DNA from: Lachnospiraceae bacterium
GTDB lineage: Bacteria; Bacillota; Clostridia; Lachnospirales; Lachnospiraceae
Assembly: GCA_017444015.1 (NCBI GenBank)
Contig: JAFSXN010000028.1
Coordinates: 1-58,774, forward strand
Length of the DNA stretch: 58,774 bases
Reading direction: 5' to 3'
Part shown: positions 1 through 9,044 of the stretch, piece by piece
Numbering within the stretch: the first letter of the stretch is position 1
How the letters are laid out: the number at the start of each line of letters is the position of its first letter
Notes under the pieces: generated by a model
Told to the model about the DNA's origin: nothing
The model's database searches: none
Seen by the model: the letters and a program-made list of their open reading frames with translations, nothing else
Translations under genes and position numbers: made by a program

Positions 1-3000
1 GAAGCCTTTAACGGGCGGCCGGTGAGCTTTGATACCCTGAGGGAATATGATACGCCTGCTCTGCTTGCCTCTTATCTTTCAGAGGAGGGAGATCAGAAGG
101 ATTATGAAATAAGGGAACGCTATCCGCTGACAAAGACTCAGGAGGGCATCTATGTGGAATGCCTCTCCCATCCGGGGACGACGATCTATAACATCCCGGC
201 TCTTTTAAGGCTCGGAAGGAATGTAGATCCTGACAGGCTGGAAGGAGCGATATCCGCTGCCATTGATGCGCATCCGGGGCTTAAGGCAAGGCTTGTGACA
301 GAAGACGGAGAGGCCTTTCTTCTCAGAAATGACGAAGAGCTTCCCGTTATCGAGCGGATCCGGCTTGATACTTTGCCTGCGGCAGAGGAGCTTGTTCTGC
401 CCTATGAACTGGATGGCGGAAGGCTCTATCAGGCAAGGATCTATGAAACGCAGGCGGGAAGCTTCCTGTTCCTGGATCTGCATCATATCATCGCGGACGG
501 AGCCTCGAGACAGATTATTAAAAGGGATATCGAACGAGCCTACGCGGGTGAGACCCTTCAAAGGGAGAGCTTTACCGGCTTTGAGGCTGCCCTTGCGGAA
601 GAGGAGGAAAGAAAGGGGAAACGGTATACCGAAGCAAAGGAGTGGTATGATTCGGTATTTACGGGCTGCGAAGAAAAACTGCCGCCCCCTGACCCGGACC
701 TTTCGGGGAACCGGACGGGACGCGAAGCAGAGACGGGAGCAGGTACGCTTACCTTCCCCACAAAGCTCTCCAAGGAGTCCGTACTTCGGTTCTGCGAAGA
801 GTCCGCCATCACGCCGAATATCTTCTTTAACGGGGTATTTGCCGTTACCCTTGCCTGTTTTTCCGATTCCGGGGAGGCTGTTTTTACAACGATCTATAAC
901 GGGAGAAGGGACAGCCGGTACAGAAACATGGCAGCGATGCTTGTAAAGACGCTTCCGGTCAGGTTCTTCGCGGATCCGAAGCAGACCGTAAAGGAAAGTC
1001 TTACGAGGCTAAAAGATCAGCTCGAAGGCGCCATGGAGCACGATCTATACTCCTTCGCGGAAGCGGCGAGAGCGTACCATATTGACGCGGAGGCTATGTT
1101 TGCCTGGCAGGAGGAGAGCTTTACGAAGCTTGGCGGAGCTTTCTCCATGCGCTCTGACGAGGCCCGGAACCGTAACGAAAACTCGGACGCTTCTTACAGC
1201 CTTGACTGGGCAGATACCGGTTTTCACCCGACCCTTTCCGCCGCGAAATCAGCGCTTTCGGTAGAAGCTTTTTTCCGGGGAGAGAAAATCACCTTCCTTG
1301 CGGAATACCGGCCGGCTACCTATGGAGAGGGCTTTGTAAGCTCCTTCCTAAAGACCATGGAGCAGATCGCGTCGGAGATGCTTAAGGGGAGCGGGAGGAA
1401 GCTTTCAGAGCTTCGTCCTGTATCAGAGGAGACGGAGAAGGAGCTCTTTGAGCTGTACGATACCGATCAGGAGATAGAGAAAAGACCCGCGTACCGTCTG
1501 CTTCAGGACAGCACGAAGAAGTATCCCGACAGAGTCGCCGTAGTAACAAGCGGCGAAAGCCTTACCTATCAGGAACTGAACAGAGCGGCAAATCGCTTGG
1601 GGTGGATCCTCAGAGACCTGGCGCTGTTTGTCGGGGATCTCTGTGCCGTTATGCTTCGCAGGGGTCCCGAGGTCTATATCGCGAGACAGGGGATCCTAAA
1701 AGCGGGAGGCGCTTTTTTACCCATCGATCCGGATTACCCAAACGAACGGATCTCCTATATTCTTAAGGATTCCGGCGCGACACACATCATCACCTCAAAG
1801 GAGCTGTATCTGGAGAGAAAGGAGCTGCTTGATACTTTCGAGATAGAGATTATCTTTGCGGAGAATGCCGGAGAAGAGGAAGGAATTTTTTCCTCAGAGG
1901 ACCTGAACCTTGAGATCCCGGAAGATTCCCTGGCCTACTGTATTTATACCTCGGGCTCTACGGGAAAGCCCAAGGGCGTGCTTCTGACCCAGAAGAATCT
2001 CGTCAATTTCGTAGACGCGAATCCCAAAAATCAGGAGGTCCTCGGCTATACGGAGAGGGGAAGGGTGTCTTTGGCTTTTGCTGCCATGACCTTTGATGTG
2101 TCCGTTATGGAGGAATTTATCCCCTTAAGCCACGGGCTGACGATCTGCCTGGCAAACGACGAAGAAAGACATGATTATGCGGCTCTGGGAAAGCTTTGCG
2201 AGGAGAAGCATGTGGATATTCTGACCTGCACGCCGTCGTTTCTTGCAAATATTCTGGAATCCGGGGAAATGCTGCCTGTGCTTCAGGCTCTTAAGTCCAT
2301 CGACATAGGAGCGGAGGCATTTCCGGCTTCCTTATACAAAAAGATCCGGGCGGTAAACCCCGAGGTCTATATCATGAACGGCTACGGGCCGACGGAGGCT
2401 ACGATCAGCTGTACCATGGCCGTTATGCAGGGGCAGAGCCTTATTACCATCGGTAAGCCCAGTGCCAATATGAAGGTCGCCATCATGGACCGGACGGACC
2501 GTCCTGTTCCGAAGGGAGCGCTTGGGGAAATGGTGATCGTCGGCGCCGGAGTAGGAAAGGGCTATATAAACCTGCCGGAGCAGACAAAGAAGAGTTTTAT
2601 TACCTTATGGGACCGCCCCGCCTACAGGAGCGGCGATCTGGCGCGGATCCTTCATAATAATGAGATCGAATTCCGCGGGAGAATGGATAATCAGGTTAAG
2701 CTCAGAGGGCTGCGCGTAGAGCTGGATGAAATAGAAAATGTCCTGAGCGGTTTTCCCGGGATCGGATCGGCTGTGGTCGTTGTAAGAAACAATACCGGCG
2801 AAGATTATCTTGCGGGCTTTTATACCGCGAAAGGACAGATCTCCGATACAGAGGTCAGGGATTATTTAAAGAGCAGGCTGTCTGATTATATGGTTCCCGA
2901 CGTGCTTGCGAGGCTTGAGGAAATGCCGCTTACGGCAAACGGAAAGATCGATAAAAAGCGGCTGCCTGAGGTAACACAGGGAGAAAGACAGGAATACGCC

Positions 3001-4491
3001 GCGCCTGAGAATGAGGTCGAGGAGGCGTTCTGCAGGGCGTTTGAGGAGATTCTTAAGCTTGACAGGGCAGGAGCAAACGATGATTTCTTCGCCCTCGGCG
3101 GGACCTCTCTGTCCGCTATGCGGGTCGTATCCTTCGCGCTGAAAAGAGATTGGGATATCGTATATAAGAATGTCTTCGACTATCCTACGCCAAGAAAGCT
3201 TTCCAGGCTGATCCTTGGACAAAGGAAGCCCTCTGCGGACGCGGCACCTGACGGCGATATGGACGGACAAAAGCCCCACACAGTTATAAAGCAATCGGCG
3301 GAAAATAGTGAGACACAGCCGGAAGATGAGCTATATTCCGTACTATCCCATAACCGCGCGGAATATTTGAGCGAGATAAGAGCGGGGGAGACGGGGACTG
3401 TTTTTCTTACGGGAGCGACCGGGTTCCTCGGGATCCACGTTCTGTACGAACTGTTAAAGGAAAAGGATCGAAGGATCATCTGCCTTGCCAGAAACGGAAG
3501 GACCCTGTCCGGAGAAAAGCGGTTGAAGGCCTTATCGGTCTACTATTTTGACGACAGCTTTGATGAGGACTTTCAGACAAGGATCCGTGTCGTTAACGCG
3601 GAGATCACAGATGAAAAGCTTGCGGAGGTTCTTTCTGACGAGAAGATCGATACGATCATAAACTGCGCGGCGGTCGTAAAGCATTTTTCGGCGGATGACA
3701 GTATAAACAGGATCAACGTAGACGGGGTAAAGAGGTTAGTAGAGCTTGCGCTTTTAAAGGGAGCAAGGCTTGTACAGGTATCGACAGAGAGCGTCGCCGG
3801 GCAGTCGGTGGACGGAAGTGTTCCCGAAAACGTTGTTCTGACGGAGGATTCGTATCAGATCGGGCAGTCCTTCGGAACGAAGTACGCGCTTTCGAAGTTT
3901 CAGGCGGAGGGAGAGATCCTTCGCGCCGTAAAGTATCGGGGCCTTCGGGCAAAGATCGTTCGGGTGGGAAACCTGATGGGGAGGCGTGACGACGGAGAAT
4001 TTCAGATCAATTTCCGGACAAACGGCTTTATGAACCGCCTGAGAGCCTATGAGACGTTAGGGTGCTTTCCTGTGGATGAGCTGGACAGCCCGGTGGAGTT
4101 TTCGCCGGTGGATATGACTGCGAAGGCCCTTGTACTCCTTGGCGCGACTCCCGATCCCTTTACGGTTTTTCACGCGGATAACTGCCACTGTATCCACATG
4201 GCGAATGTTTTCGAGGTCTTTGAGAGCTGCGGCTTTACCGTCGATATCGTTGAGACGGAGGAATACGAAAGGCGCCTTAAGAAAGCCCTTGCGGACGAGA
4301 AAAAGGGGCTGATCGTTTCCAGTCTGATCTCCTATCGGAACAACGAGGGGGAAAACCGGAGATATATCGGCTGTAACAGTTCCTTTACGGTAAAAGCACT
4401 GTACCGGCTTGGCTTTTCATGGCCGGTCGTCACGCCGGAGTATGTGAAAAAGGCTATTCTGGCGCTTACAACCATGGGGTTGTTTGAATAG
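1..4491 (+). CDS. Nonribosomal peptide synthetase, 3' part: (T)-C-A-T-reductase
   Basis: The frame is open from the first base, so the N-terminus lies upstream; the first 25 or so residues look like the tail of a carrier domain. Then come a condensation domain (about residues 40-470, HHIIADG near 161), an adenylation domain (about 490-1000; TSGSTGKPKG, NGYGPTEAT, YRSGDLAR, NGKID), a carrier domain (about 1005-1080; LGGTSLS with the phosphopantetheine serine) and a C-terminal NAD(P)H thioester reductase (from about 1133; TGATGFLG, YALSK near 1294). A reductase in place of a thioesterase releases the chain as an aldehyde or alcohol; such enzymes from gut Clostridia are known to make dipeptide aldehydes and pyrazinones. 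The Asp in FDVSVME at the amine-binding position suggests an alpha-amino acid substrate, which I cannot name. The exporter gene starts 45 bp later, probably in the same operon. Confidence 0.95.
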   Translation, partial: EAFNGRPVSFDTLREYDTPALLASYLSEEGDQKDYEIRERYPLTKTQEGIYVECLSHPGTTIYNIPALLRLGRNVDPDRLEGAISAAIDAHPGLKARLVTEDGEAFLLRNDEELPVIERIRLDTLPAAEELVLPYELDGGRLYQARIYETQAGSFLFLDLHHIIADGASRQIIKRDIERAYAGETLQRESFTGFEAALAEEEERKGKRYTEAKEWYDSVFTGCEEKLPPPDPDLSGNRTGREAETGAGTLTFPTKLSKESVLRFCEESAITPNIFFNGVFAVTLACFSDSGEAVFTTIYNGRRDSRYRNMAAMLVKTLPVRFFADPKQTVKESLTRLKDQLEGAMEHDLYSFAEAARAYHIDAEAMFAWQEESFTKLGGAFSMRSDEARNRNENSDASYSLDWADTGFHPTLSAAKSALSVEAFFRGEKITFLAEYRPATYGEGFVSSFLKTMEQIASEMLKGSGRKLSELRPVSEETEKELFELYDTDQEIEKRPAYRLLQDSTKKYPDRVAVVTSGESLTYQELNRAANRLGWILRDLALFVGDLCAVMLRRGPEVYIARQGILKAGGAFLPIDPDYPNERISYILKDSGATHIITSKELYLERKELLDTFEIEIIFAENAGEEEGIFSSEDLNLEIPEDSLAYCIYTSGSTGKPKGVLLTQKNLVNFVDANPKNQEVLGYTERGRVSLAFAAMTFDVSVMEEFIPLSHGLTICLANDEERHDYAALGKLCEEKHVDILTCTPSFLANILESGEMLPVLQALKSIDIGAEAFPASLYKKIRAVNPEVYIMNGYGPTEATISCTMAVMQGQSLITIGKPSANMKVAIMDRTDRPVPKGALGEMVIVGAGVGKGYINLPEQTKKSFITLWDRPAYRSGDLARILHNNEIEFRGRMDNQVKLRGLRVELDEIENVLSGFPGIGSAVVVVRNNTGEDYLAGFYTAKGQISDTEVRDYLKSRLSDYMVPDVLARLEEMPLTANGKIDKKRLPEVTQGERQEYAAPENEVEEAFCRAFEEILKLDRAGANDDFFALGGTSLSAMRVVSFALKRDWDIVYKNVFDYPTPRKLSRLILGQRKPSADAAPDGDMDGQKPHTVIKQSAENSETQPEDELYSVLSHNRAEYLSEIRAGETGTVFLTGATGFLGIHVLYELLKEKDRRIICLARNGRTLSGEKRLKALSVYYFDDSFDEDFQTRIRVVNAEITDEKLAEVLSDEKIDTIINCAAVVKHFSADDSINRINVDGVKRLVELALLKGARLVQVSTESVAGQSVDGSVPENVVLTEDSYQIGQSFGTKYALSKFQAEGEILRAVKYRGLRAKIVRVGNLMGRRDDGEFQINFRTNGFMNRLRAYETLGCFPVDELDSPVEFSPVDMTAKALVLLGATPDPFTVFHADNCHCIHMANVFEVFESCGFTVDIVETEEYERRLKKALADEKKGLIVSSLISYRNNEGENRRYIGCNSSFTVKALYRLGFSWPVVTPEYVKKAILALTTMGLFE

Positions 4492-4536
4492 ATAATTGGA
4501 TCCGGCCGGAAGCAGACCGGCGAGGGAGGAAGTCAA

Positions 4537-6300
4537 ATGAGTCTGAAAAGAAACAGCAGCCTTGTAAGGAAAAAATATCTGGAATATCTGGCATCTACGC
4601 TGGCCTTTACCCTGTCCATCTATATCGCCTCCATCGTGGACGGGATCATGGTGAGCCGGCTGATCAGTCCCCTCAGTCTGACAGCCATCAATCTGACCTT
4701 TCCCGTTCTCTATATGAAGAACATTGTTTTCTGCCTTTTTATAAGCGGCGGCTGTACCCTTGCCGCGCAGGCCATGGGCTTTCGGGATCAGGATAAGTGC
4801 AACCGTGCCTATACCGTTTCCGTTGTTTGCGGGATCATCGCTTCCGGCACTCTCGCCGCAGCGGGTGTCATATTTGCCTCTCCTCTGGCGGAGCTTCTGA
4901 CGAAGGGAGGGAGTCTTAAGCAGGAGGTGCTTGCGTATCTGATACCGCTTTGGATCGTTGGCCCGATCGTTGTTTTGACGAACGGCTCTGCAGCCTATAT
5001 GCGCCTTGAGGGGAAGCACCGTCTCGCGATAGCCGTTCCGGTAGTGGCGAACGTGATCAATCTGCTCTGCGATTATGTCTATATTAAGCTGTTCGGCCTT
5101 GGGATCGCGGGAGCGGGATGGGCTACGGTGACGGGCTATGCCTGCTCGGCGCTTTTGCTGATCCCGTATTCTAAGGATGCGAGCCGGACGCTGCATTTCA
5201 CCCGCCTGAAACGAGGGGATCTCAAGCTCCTTAAGGAGTGCCTTGCCACCGGGCTTCCCATCAGCCTGGTGGACGGCTGCGATATGCTCAGGCACTATAC
5301 GGTCAACGCGATGATGCTAAGACTCTTAGGGGATACCGGCGGTGAGCTGATCTCTGTCTGCAATGCGGCAATGCTGTATGCCTTAATGTTCTCCGACGGC
5401 GCCAGTTGTGCCATGACGAGCGTGACCGGCGCACTGTACGGAGAGGGGGACGCAAGGGGGATGCGGGGAGTTTTAAAAAGCGCCATGACTGTAACGGGAG
5501 GGCTGTGCCTCTGTATCTTCCTGATACTTGAGTGCTTTCCGGGGTATTTCGCGGGGATCTACGGGGTAAGGGATCCGGAGGTCCTCTCTGTCCTGATCCC
5601 CTATCTGCGCATATACTGTCTTGCTGTTCCGATCGTTGCGCCCCTGTACGTTCTTCGCTGCTTTTATCAGTCTACAAAGCAGGAAAAGGCAGCGACCGCC
5701 ATGTCCGTGCTGGAGGGGGCGCTTATTATGATCCCGGTTTTTCTGCTGCTCTCAGGGATCGGTATCCGGGCGATGGCCGCCTCCTACGCGATATCCGTTT
5801 TCCTGACGCTCCTTGTGGTCTGTATGTATATGCAGAAAAAGGCAGGAAAAAACGGGCTGACCGGTTTTCTTATGCTCCCGCCGTTTAAGGAGAGCGAAAC
5901 CTTTGAGGCAAGCATTGACTGTACCCTGGAGGCCTCGGAAAAAGCGTCCGAGGAGGTGATCCTGTTCTGCAAAGAAAACGGGGTTCCTGCTGTCATTGGG
6001 AACGCGGCAGGAGTTGCTACAGAGGAGCTCTGTACGAACATAGCGAAATGGTCCGGGCAGGGACCGAAGGATCAGATCGACCTGTTCCTCAGGATTTCAG
6101 AGGATCACCTCATTCTGAAAACACGGGACGGGGGAACAATCTTTAACCCGACGGAGTTTATCGAGGAAGGAGAGTGGATCACGGGGCTGTCCCTTTTGCG
6201 TTCTCTTTCCGCCCGGATCGAATACGACAGGATTCTGGGCTTTAATACGGTGATCGTAACGATGCATAAGGCGGAAGAAAAGCGATATTTATATCATTAA
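4537..6300 (+). CDS. MATE-family exporter fused to an anti-sigma-type ATPase domain
   Basis: Residues 1 to about 445 are a polytopic MATE-type multidrug/metabolite exporter with about 12 hydrophobic segments. Residues about 460-587 are soluble and look like a GHKL ATPase of the RsbW/SpoIIAB class: an N-box-like ATEELCTNIAKW near 495, then TRDGG and FNP, and an ITGLSLLRSL helix. The start ATG follows a strong GGGAGGAAG site. It sits directly after the peptide synthetase, so export of that product, or protection from it, is the simplest inference. The ATPase domain may couple transport to a partner-switch signal. The two halves are in one continuous frame with no sign of a sequencing frameshift. 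The MATE assignment is firm; the role of the C-terminal domain is inferred. Confidence 0.85.
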   Translation: MSLKRNSSLVRKKYLEYLASTLAFTLSIYIASIVDGIMVSRLISPLSLTAINLTFPVLYMKNIVFCLFISGGCTLAAQAMGFRDQDKCNRAYTVSVVCGIIASGTLAAAGVIFASPLAELLTKGGSLKQEVLAYLIPLWIVGPIVVLTNGSAAYMRLEGKHRLAIAVPVVANVINLLCDYVYIKLFGLGIAGAGWATVTGYACSALLLIPYSKDASRTLHFTRLKRGDLKLLKECLATGLPISLVDGCDMLRHYTVNAMMLRLLGDTGGELISVCNAAMLYALMFSDGASCAMTSVTGALYGEGDARGMRGVLKSAMTVTGGLCLCIFLILECFPGYFAGIYGVRDPEVLSVLIPYLRIYCLAVPIVAPLYVLRCFYQSTKQEKAATAMSVLEGALIMIPVFLLLSGIGIRAMAASYAISVFLTLLVVCMYMQKKAGKNGLTGFLMLPPFKESETFEASIDCTLEASEKASEEVILFCKENGVPAVIGNAAGVATEELCTNIAKWSGQGPKDQIDLFLRISEDHLILKTRDGGTIFNPTEFIEEGEWITGLSLLRSLSARIEYDRILGFNTVIVTMHKAEEKRYLYH

Positions 6301-8381: not shown

Positions 8382-8539
8382 TCCTTGCGATTTTACGAAG
8401 TATTTCTCTCTCGTTTTTGGCTTATTTTCTGTTTGGGAGACCATAGAGGATATGAATGCAGCAATCGTTAAAAGAATGTTCCGGGGTATTTTGGATGAAA
8501 AAGGGTACGCGTCGTGCTTGTCGTAATGTAAGAAATACC

Positions 8540-8567
8540 TTGCTTTTGGGGATAATTTTTGTATAAT
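8540..8567 (+). promoter_or_regulatory. Promoter of the 36-base repeat RNA
   Basis: TTGCTT and TATAAT with a 16-base spacer, a good vegetative promoter. Initiation would fall near 8574, 14 bases before the first 36-base repeat, as expected for a type III antitoxin RNA. Confidence 0.65.
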
Positions 8568-8573
8568 ATAGGT

Positions 8574-8735
8574 GAACAAGGGATTTGTTCGATTAAAGAG
8601 CCCTGTTACTTTGAGTACAGACCTTTAATTTAAGAGCTTCACTACTTTAAGTGTGGACCTTTAATTTAAGAGCTTCGCTGCTTAGAGTGCGAATCGTTAA
8701 TTCAGGGAGATAAGAGGATTATCTCCCTGTTTCAG
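8574..8735 (+). ncRNA. Candidate type III antitoxin RNA (three 36-base tandem repeats)
   Basis: Three adjacent units of exactly 36 bases lie at 8588-8623, 8624-8659 and 8660-8695, plus the first bases of a fourth. Each has the same internal stem at unit positions 15-19 and 30-34, and the paired bases covary: CTGT/ACAG in the first, TTCAC/GTGGA in the second, TTCGC/GCGAA in the third. A promoter precedes and an intrinsic terminator follows, and then comes a ribosome binding site with a ToxN-like start. This is the layout of ToxIN/AbiQ-type loci, where short pseudoknot repeats (about 34-45 bases) bind and neutralise the endoribonuclease toxin. The transcript ends are inferred. Confidence 0.65.
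8703..8729 (+). terminator. Terminator between antitoxin repeats and toxin start
   Basis: CAGGGAGATAA pairs perfectly with TTATCTCCCTG (11 bp, loop GAGGA), followed by TTTCAGTT. In type III toxin-antitoxin loci a leaky terminator at this place sets the excess of antitoxin RNA over toxin mRNA. Confidence 0.65.
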
Positions 8736-8748
8736 TTATGGAGGAATT

Positions 8749-8793
8749 ATGGATTTTTATAGAATTGATGCGGGGTATAACAATTATCCTTAG
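8749..8793 (+). pseudogene. Remnant of a ToxN/AbiQ-type toxin start (14 codons)
   Basis: GGAGG stands just upstream of ATG, then the frame reads MDFYRIDAGYNNYP and stops with TAG. The pattern FY-I-x3-Y-x2-Y matches how ToxN-family endoribonucleases begin (as I remember it, Pectobacterium ToxN begins MKFYTISSKYIEYL). The stop codon lies inside the perfect inverted repeat that begins at 8783, and no continuation of a toxin is visible beyond it in any frame. So the toxin seems to have been deleted or replaced, leaving the antitoxin RNA. The match is short; position after the repeat array and terminator is the stronger argument. Confidence 0.5.
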
Positions 8794-8849
8794 TTCCCGA
8801 GATATTTTGTGCCATGTAGACACAAAATATCTCGGGAACTAAGGATAAT
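8783..8849. repeat. Perfect 29-bp inverted repeat with 9-base loop
   Basis: The arms (8783-8811 and 8821-8849, beginning ATTATCCTTAG and ending CTAAGGATAAT) are perfectly complementary around the loop CCATGTAGA. ACA flanks both ends and could be a 3-bp target duplication. The element cuts off the toxin-like start. It lacks a T-run, so a terminator is not the obvious reading; a tiny hairpin transposon (MITE) or a deletion scar would also fit. Confidence 0.8.
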
Positions 8850-9044
8850 ACAACGAAGGGAAAGGGAAGAATCCTTGTCACGGCCAGCAATTCATCCGAT
8901 AAGGCTGTAGGGAGTAAAGCGTGCGACTTTACGATCCGGTCGAGGGGGCTTGCCGGTCTGATAGAGTGGATCAGGAAGTGATCACGGGAGGAGATATAAA
9001 AAGTCGCTTTGCGGCCCGCCAATCGGGGAGGGATCAAAAGCGCC
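8850..9044. other. Stretch without a recognised gene
   Basis: No intact gene is recognised. One + frame from about 8852 reads GRILVTASNSSDKAVGSKAC and on to a stop near 8980, which has coding-like composition but no start of its own, because the inverted repeat precedes it. It could be a gene fragment left by the same event that removed the toxin. Confidence 0.3.

What the first reader, a model, noticed from the sequence alone, without database searches (positions are those of the whole stretch)
8540..8793. Relic of a type III toxin-antitoxin locus with an apparently intact antitoxin RNA
Seen directly: a promoter, three tandem units of exactly 36 bases, an 11-bp terminator hairpin, a GGAGG site, and an ORF starting MDFYRIDAGYNNYP. 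The internal stem of each repeat is kept while its bases change (CTGT/ACAG, TTCAC/GTGGA, TTCGC/GCGAA). Established: ToxIN, AbiQ and related type III systems have this exact order, and ToxN proteins start with an FY-I-x3-Y-x2-Y-like pattern. Inference: the toxin was lost, and the remaining RNA could act as a free antitoxin that protects against toxins brought in by phage or plasmids.
Basis: partly seen in the sequence, partly recalled or inferred. Interest (0 to 1): 0.8.

Follow-up and report, generated by a model that had tools for sequence, protein, structure and literature searches.

The report
Orphaned RNA antidote, toxin gene gone
This stretch is the left half of a bacterial toxin-antidote module whose toxin gene has been lost while its RNA antidote still looks largely usable, and a good share of the related loci found in other bacteria have lost the toxin gene too.

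Summary
Window 8540-8793 has a promoter-like site, three tandem 36-base units, an 11-bp terminator hairpin, a GGAGG site and a 14-codon ORF. A covariance model built from ten toxin-bearing loci, window excluded, finds the array at 149 bits, E 5e-26. In those loci the same array directly precedes an intact ToxN-family toxin beginning MDFY, which the stub echoes. So this is an orphaned type III antitoxin.

Of 30 loci found from the RNA side, 14 have an intact toxin frame and 12 have it deleted, interrupted or absent; 4 are doubtful or cut off. Toxin loss is recurrent.

A protective role is not shown. Stem 2 is kept by pair-preserving changes, but every unit has lost the same inner stem-1 pair. 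Several sibling orphan arrays look damaged. A 43% identical toxin sits in a Clostridioides phage and one viral contig carries a single antidote-like unit.

The parts
8540..8567 (+). promoter-like site TTGCTT-16-TATAAT
   Evidence: sequence; a TATAAT-like box at the same place in most toxin-bearing loci; not listed by the consensus scan
8574..8590 (+). leader hairpin GAACAA/TTGTTC; relatives commonly have GAGCAA/TTGCTC here
   Evidence: read by eye; not counted by a tool
8592..8627 (+). antitoxin unit 1; stem 2 CTGT/ACAG where relatives have TTGC/GCAA (two double changes)
8628..8663 (+). antitoxin unit 2; stem 2 TTCAC/GTGGA (one wobble)
8664..8699 (+). antitoxin unit 3; stem 2 TTCGC/GCGAA, as in relatives
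8703..8729 (+). intrinsic terminator hairpin between antitoxin and toxin start
   Evidence: conserved in the alignments
8740..8744 (+). GGAGG ribosome-binding site
   Evidence: same place in the loci
8749..8793 (+). stub of a ToxN-family toxin gene, MDFYRIDAGYNNYP then stop
   Evidence: 9 of 12 residues shared with the best relative; 6.1 bits, E 1.1 in a subfamily profile search, too short to score
8783..8811 (+). left arm of a perfect 29-bp inverted repeat at the break
   Evidence: 24 bases of the arm have no other site in the own genome at up to 3 mismatches
8821..8849 (+). right arm of the inverted repeat
8820..8978 (+). open frame running on from the right arm, possibly a 5'-truncated fragment of an unrelated gene
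   Evidence: frame read; no family above its cut-off (best Spiralin, E 0.045, below cut-off; none); no match in plasmids or viral contigs

Best explanation
A probably horizontally acquired ToxN/AbiQ-family type III toxin-antitoxin locus lost its toxin gene after about codon 12, in an event whose junction now carries a perfect 29-bp palindrome. The antitoxin transcription unit remains: promoter, three 36-nt units, terminator. If transcribed, it would give a short terminated RNA with three H-type pseudoknots. In characterised systems of this family the repeats bind and silence the toxin; here no cognate toxin is found in the assembled genome, so the RNA has no partner and at most is a latent antidote should a cognate toxin enter. 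Shown: the anatomy, the homology, absence of the toxin from this assembly, stem 2 kept. Inferred: transcription, folding, the order of events, any antidote activity. I think it is mainly a recent remnant; lasting selection for protection is possible but less likely.
For: Model without the window: 149.2 bits, E 5e-26. The same array, terminator and GGAGG precede intact PF13958 toxins in other genomes. Named pairs (pseudoknots plus terminator) form in 97.9% of cells over 14 loci, with 9 pairs changed on both sides and 0 of 500 shuffles as high; of these 9, five are in the terminator and two come from the window itself. Ten toxin-bearing loci without the window: 99.5% of cells, 1 of 500 shuffles as high, 3 pairs changed on both sides, two of them in the terminator. 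The five stem-2 changes of the window keep every pair; random placement does so with p 0.002, or 0.009 with transition bias. No convincing array in the 36 other genomes of the genus, which points to acquisition. Own genome: one PF13958 hit, a toxin of another subfamily on another contig. G+C is 0.37-0.40 over 8400-8899 and 0.475 in 8800-8999. The palindrome is perfect, so it looks recent.
Against: All three units lost the inner stem-1 pair (position 8 T to A), seen in all units of no other of 19 loci compared. The counted units of the window have the lowest mean identity to the relatives' consensus among the 28 loci scored. The genome is a fragmented assembly (201 contigs, 94.1% complete, 5.5% contamination), so a junction error or a toxin on a missing contig is not excluded. 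Rfam's ToxI model does not recognise the array. No transcript data.
Confidence: 0.86

Rival explanations
1. Selected orphan antidote: the array is kept because its RNA neutralises ToxN-type toxins brought in by phages or plasmids.
For: The RNA unit is complete and stem 2 is kept by pair-preserving changes. The change at position 8 is the same in all three units, which looks like concerted change rather than random decay (inference). Toxin loss with the array retained is frequent: 12 of 30 loci. A Clostridioides phage carries a 43% identical toxin with a 3-unit array. Phage-borne antitoxin repeats are known to suppress ToxN (passages of PMC3475682).
Against: Sibling orphans show damage by eye: whole or part units missing in L057, L066, L070, L075, L078 and a weakened or lost promoter in L066, L073, L074; two-unit arrays also occur with intact toxins (L060, L072), so a missing unit alone is not proof. 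Three or more well-formed units in 12 of 15 toxin-bearing against 6 of 13 toxin-broken loci, Fisher p 0.11: not significant, in the direction of decay. No close copy of this subfamily's toxin among listed plasmid hits (best 33.5%, 20 of 46 records listed) or phages (best 43%).
Confidence: 0.2
2. Assembly artefact: the real genome has an intact toxin and the contig was wrongly joined at the palindrome.
For: Fragmented assembly with some contamination; a unique perfect palindrome exactly at the break.
Against: A fold-back chimera would continue into the reverse complement of the left side; the sequence beyond the palindrome does not (by eye). Toxin losses of other kinds occur in other assemblies, one of them a record named as a strain (Parablautia, L059). 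No second piece of this toxin found in the own genome.
Confidence: 0.09
3. The toxin acts in trans: the array is the working antitoxin of a toxin elsewhere in the genome.
For: The genome holds another ToxN-family gene on contig C172.
Against: That toxin is of another subfamily and the array model finds nothing at its locus (L001). In the 12 genomes reached from broken loci no intact toxin of this subfamily was found elsewhere (completeness of those genomes not told).
Confidence: 0.04
4. Chance repeats, or an unrelated riboregulator or leader of the downstream gene.
For: Rfam does not name it.
Against: E 5e-26 by an independent model and the same order with intact toxins elsewhere.
Confidence: 0.01

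Closest known systems
ToxN/AbiQ family type III toxin-antitoxin loci (ToxIN, AbiQ; Pfam PF13958, PADLOC AbiQ)
   Same: Order of parts, 36-nt tandem units, terminator between array and toxin, pseudoknot pairing, N-terminal start of the toxin
   Different: No toxin beyond about codon 12; palindrome at the break; stem 1 one pair shorter in each unit; not matched by Rfam's ToxI
pseudo-ToxI of phage PhiTE (PMC3475682, passages seen)
   Same: Toxin-less antitoxin repeats
   Different: Here on a bacterial contig with its own promoter and terminator, and left over from a complete locus rather than a phage mimic
Orphan antitoxins of type II systems (search listing only, e.g. PMC7354431)
   Same: Antitoxin left without its toxin
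   Different: RNA rather than protein antitoxin

Membership tests
Type III toxin-antitoxin system, ToxN/AbiQ family | Tandem array of about 36-nt antitoxin repeats | tested here: met
   three units of 36 nt; 149 bits with an independent model
Type III toxin-antitoxin system, ToxN/AbiQ family | Terminator hairpin between array and toxin | tested here: met
   8703-8729, conserved
Type III toxin-antitoxin system, ToxN/AbiQ family | Each repeat folds as an H-type pseudoknot | tested here: inconclusive
   stem 2 kept in all units; stem 1 one pair short in all units; fold not measured
Type III toxin-antitoxin system, ToxN/AbiQ family | Adjacent ToxN-fold endoribonuclease gene | tested here: not met
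   14-codon stub only; no further toxin piece in the three forward frames over the next 3.3 kb
Type III toxin-antitoxin system, ToxN/AbiQ family | RNA neutralises the cognate toxin | not testable with these tools
   needs an assay
Rfam ToxI (RF02519) | Match to the covariance model | tested here: not met
   no match at gathering score, none up to E 10 over 8500-8860; only own-genome match is elsewhere, E 6
Phage pseudo-ToxI | Carried by a phage | tested here: inconclusive
   no similar DNA in the phage and plasmid collections; near neighbours are an NRPS, a MATE-type and a YitT-type gene; no phage-gene scan of the whole window was made

The most novel reading that the evidence does not exclude
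Toxin-less type III antitoxin arrays are a recurrent class in Lachnospiraceae and neighbours, missed because surveys start from the toxin; some, this one included with its concerted and pair-preserving changes, are kept as standing RNA antidotes against ToxN-type toxins of phages and other mobile elements, and some phages carry single antidote units of the same kind (L122).
Probability: 0.2. Interest if true: 0.75.

Novelty: new variant of a known kind. Interest (0 to 1): 0.5.

Why it matters
A review of type III systems describes surveys that start from ToxN homologues and then ask for repeats upstream (PMC5086642, section 17), so arrays without a toxin would escape them. Searching from the RNA side shows that loss of the toxin with the RNA left behind is common in this group. 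That offers natural knock-outs for asking whether an RNA antitoxin alone is worth keeping, with a graded series from intact locus to a last remaining unit.

Tried and rejected
Palindrome as a repeated element: 24 bases of its arm occur only at this place among 99 genomes at up to 3 mismatches, 21 bases exactly nowhere in viral contigs, and the arm not in other held loci at up to 5 mismatches. Rejected as a known repeat; its origin stays open. Palindrome as an Rfam family: of the 8 matches, seven cover the long hairpin and one is a weak minus-strand hit; all are below gathering scores. Downstream fragment as rest of the toxin: no profile match. Empty site in sister species: DNA 9100-10149 matches in 6 of 37 genomes, own included, at E 1e-10, but the matches begin inside the YitT gene and the upstream text read for two of them (G017, G020) shows nothing like the window by eye, so no empty-site comparison. 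Plasmid and phage DNA searches with the array, the junction region and an intact toxin's DNA: no match (the last in plasmids only). Toxin alignment against viral contigs: no relative confirmed.

Decay test: direction only, p 0.11. Its toxin-bearing set of 15 includes L053 (C-terminal frameshift) and L061 (start codon reads ATA) and leaves out L076 (like L056); its toxin-broken set of 13 is the window plus the 12 loci; the contig-end loci L063 and L064 and the later orphans L090, L114 were not scored; the unit counter undercounts L058 and L072, whose last unit differs in length. Weak model hits G168, G243, G661, G007, G013 show no convincing unit by eye (G243 does keep a family-like promoter and terminator); G224 and G737 keep one degenerate last unit.

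Full report
OBSERVATION. The array is three units of exactly 36 bases; the hairpin is 11 bp; the ORF is 14 codons plus stop, ATG at 8749, TAG ending at 8793. The promoter rests on a good TATAAT box and a weak first hexamer; the scan did not list it. One feature is not in the finding: a perfect 29-bp inverted repeat with a 9-base loop that starts in codon 12 of the stub and is the longest of its kind in the window.

IDENTITY. In 397 genomes sampled from its family, 63 have a PF13958 (ToxN) match at E 0.001. Of 34 toxin starts printed (37 hit rows; the script then failed), four begin MDFYR (L034, L036, L038, L041), and upstream of these four stands the same arrangement as in the window: TATAAT-like box (TATACT in L038, TAAAAT in L041), small leader hairpin, three units, hairpin, ribosome site. 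L034's protein matches PF13958 at 153 bits, PADLOC AbiQ and four solved ToxN or AbiQ sequences (4ato, 2xd0, 7d8o, 4glk). A covariance model from ten toxin-bearing loci, window left out, finds the window at 149.2 bits, E 5e-26. I take the homology as certain. Rfam's own ToxI model does not see the array.

RNA STRUCTURE. The pairing that fits is an H-type pseudoknot per unit: stem 1 AAGU/ACUU interleaved with stem 2 UUCAC/GUGAA (unit 2 as example). With these and the terminator, over 14 loci (window included) 97.9% of cells pair, 9 pairs have changes on both sides, 0 of 500 shuffles reach this, and versions slid by 1-3 columns fall to 23-47%. Of the 9 pairs, five are in the terminator stem, two are the window's own unit-1 changes, and one each lies in stem 1 of unit 1 and stem 2 of unit 3. 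Without the window, ten toxin-bearing loci give 99.5%, 1 of 500 shuffles as high, 3 pairs with changes on both sides, two in the terminator and one in stem 2 of unit 3. So covariation inside the pseudoknots is real but thin; much of the support is that three units with different stem-2 letters all pair. Against the relatives' consensus the window array differs at 15 of 108 positions; the five changes in stem 2 keep every pair, two pairs by double change (p 0.002, or 0.009 with transition bias). But position 8 is A in all three units of the window, while in the other 18 loci compared it is T in all units except one C; this removes the inner stem-1 pair in each unit. L060, with an intact toxin, has A there in unit 1, and the tandem arrays of G503 have AAGAG in their units, so a three-pair stem 1 may still work. 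The sameness of the change in three units suggests concerted change rather than random decay; that is inference.

THE TOXIN IS GONE HERE. The stub shares 9 of 12 residues with its best relative before the palindrome, and no toxin piece follows in the forward frames over the next 3.3 kb. The own genome holds one PF13958 gene, of another subfamily (CptN-like, a name recalled; NCBIfam has no match for it). In the 36 other genomes of the genus no convincing array was found, so the locus was probably acquired. G+C is 0.37-0.40 over 8400-8899 and higher beyond. The palindrome arm is unique in the own genome. The right arm runs on into an open frame of unknown kin; one reading is a deletion whose junction copied 29 bases in reverse. 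I cannot show this.

TOXIN LOSS IS RECURRENT. A pattern for the unit boundary, scanned over the 84,980-species collection, returned 30 loci. By reading and profile search: 14 have an intact toxin frame (L055, L056, L058, L060, L062, L065, L067, L068, L069, L072, L076, L077, L081, L082; L058 and L065 are cut by the end of the fetched stretch and were seen whole as L038 and L034); L061 has a full frame with ATA where the start should be; L053 has a C-terminal frameshift; L063 and L064 are cut by the contig end; 12 are broken: an insertion of about 2.65 kb after codon 11 (L057), deletions within the gene (L059, L070, L078, L079), a short stub (L075), or no toxin at its place (L054, L066, L071, L073, L074, L080; in L066 the contig ends about 0.27 kb on). 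Some are close kin (L059 and L079 have the same deletion; L056 and L076 look alike; L064, L077 and L079 share an upstream region), so 30 is not 30 independent lineages, and many are metagenome assemblies. The model over 397 family genomes gave 11 matches at E 0.01: five with intact toxin (G364, G328, G221, G426, G223), the window, one orphan (G067), one cut near a contig end (G463), three weak. Over 392 order genomes, partly the same ones, 7 matches at E 0.001: the window, G750 (toxin internally deleted), G551 (intact, sister subfamily), G503 (contig end), G737 (one degenerate unit left, no toxin), two weak. In the 12 genomes reached from the broken loci no intact toxin of the same subfamily was found elsewhere; G471 and G479 have a sister-subfamily toxin with its own array.

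KEPT OR DECAYING? An automatic count of well-formed units found three or more in 12 of 15 toxin-bearing and 6 of 13 toxin-broken loci, Fisher p 0.11. The direction is decay, the sample is too small, and the faults of the scoring are told under Tried and rejected. A simple asymmetry also explains orphans without selection: a cell can lose the toxin first, but hardly the antitoxin first (general reasoning). I therefore hold the protective role at 0.2.

LINKS TO MOBILE ELEMENTS. The toxin has relatives on 46 plasmid records, the best listed 33.5% identical (20 of 46 listed), and in two phage records, the best 43% in Clostridioides phage ES-S-0107-01, which has an array spaced 36 and 35 nt whose units show the same two stems by eye. 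Unit patterns found nothing in viral contigs, but two other patterns each gave one and the same contig (L122); a reversed control of the first of these two gave none. L122 carries a single unit in which both stems are complementary by eye, between a tail-fibre gene and an integrase gene, beside a tRNA-like hairpin just below Rfam's gathering score (27.5 against 29 bits; ARAGORN finds no tRNA), with no ToxN match in the 12.6 kb held. Its fold is not better than shuffles (z -1.13, 23 of 200, a nested fold that cannot show a pseudoknot). At 28 of 36 identities to the nearest unit it is probable, not certain. Phage-borne antitoxin repeats are known to defeat ToxIN (PMC3475682, passages), so the idea of a free antidote is sound in principle; the same passages say that a single pseudo-ToxI repeat did not suppress over-expressed ToxN.

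LITERATURE. Seen: passages and section 17 of PMC5086642 and passages of PMC3475682; the word 'orphan' does not occur in the held text of either. Other papers were seen as listings only (capped lists of titles and abstract starts), and no listed title or abstract start reports toxin-less type III antitoxin arrays in bacterial genomes. The library lacks most subscription papers, and the 2012 classification paper was not held, so I do not claim that this is absent from print.

VERDICT. A genuine relic with a largely complete antitoxin RNA. It fails a defining test of a working type III system (no toxin). Its value is the recurrent pattern that it reveals.

Noticed in passing
L122:3718-3753 (IMG/VR contig of 37 kb): Single antitoxin-like unit with both stems complementary, between a tail-fibre gene and an integrase gene and next to a tRNA-like hairpin: possible phage-borne antidote unit near an attachment site.
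   Followed up: partly
L116 (G503) 75-428, reverse strand: Two tandem 3-unit arrays, each with its own promoter-like site and hairpin, no toxin between them; the contig ends just beyond.
   Followed up: partly
L026, about 1230-1494: Two different type III repeat arrays stacked before one toxin gene, the upstream one resembling the repeats of L011, another subfamily (by eye).
   Followed up: no
L090 (G067) 1501-1683: Toxin-less array whose first two units look enlarged by an inner part-duplication of about 18 bases.
   Followed up: no
L001 (G000 contig C172) 412-972, reverse strand: Complete ToxN-family gene of another (CptN-like, recalled) subfamily in the same genome; the same protein sequence is read in G017 (L008).
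   Followed up: partly
L057, about 3010-5680: Insertion of about 2.65 kb after codon 11 of the toxin; the remaining toxin pieces lie beyond it.
   Followed up: no
L054, L080: The ribosome site of the lost toxin now stands before another frame: HicA-like in L054 and methyltransferase-like in L080 (both recalled resemblances, not searched).
   Followed up: no
window 22-6300: Non-ribosomal peptide synthetase with a terminal thioester reductase domain (22-4491), followed by a MATE-type transporter gene (4537-6300).
   Followed up: no
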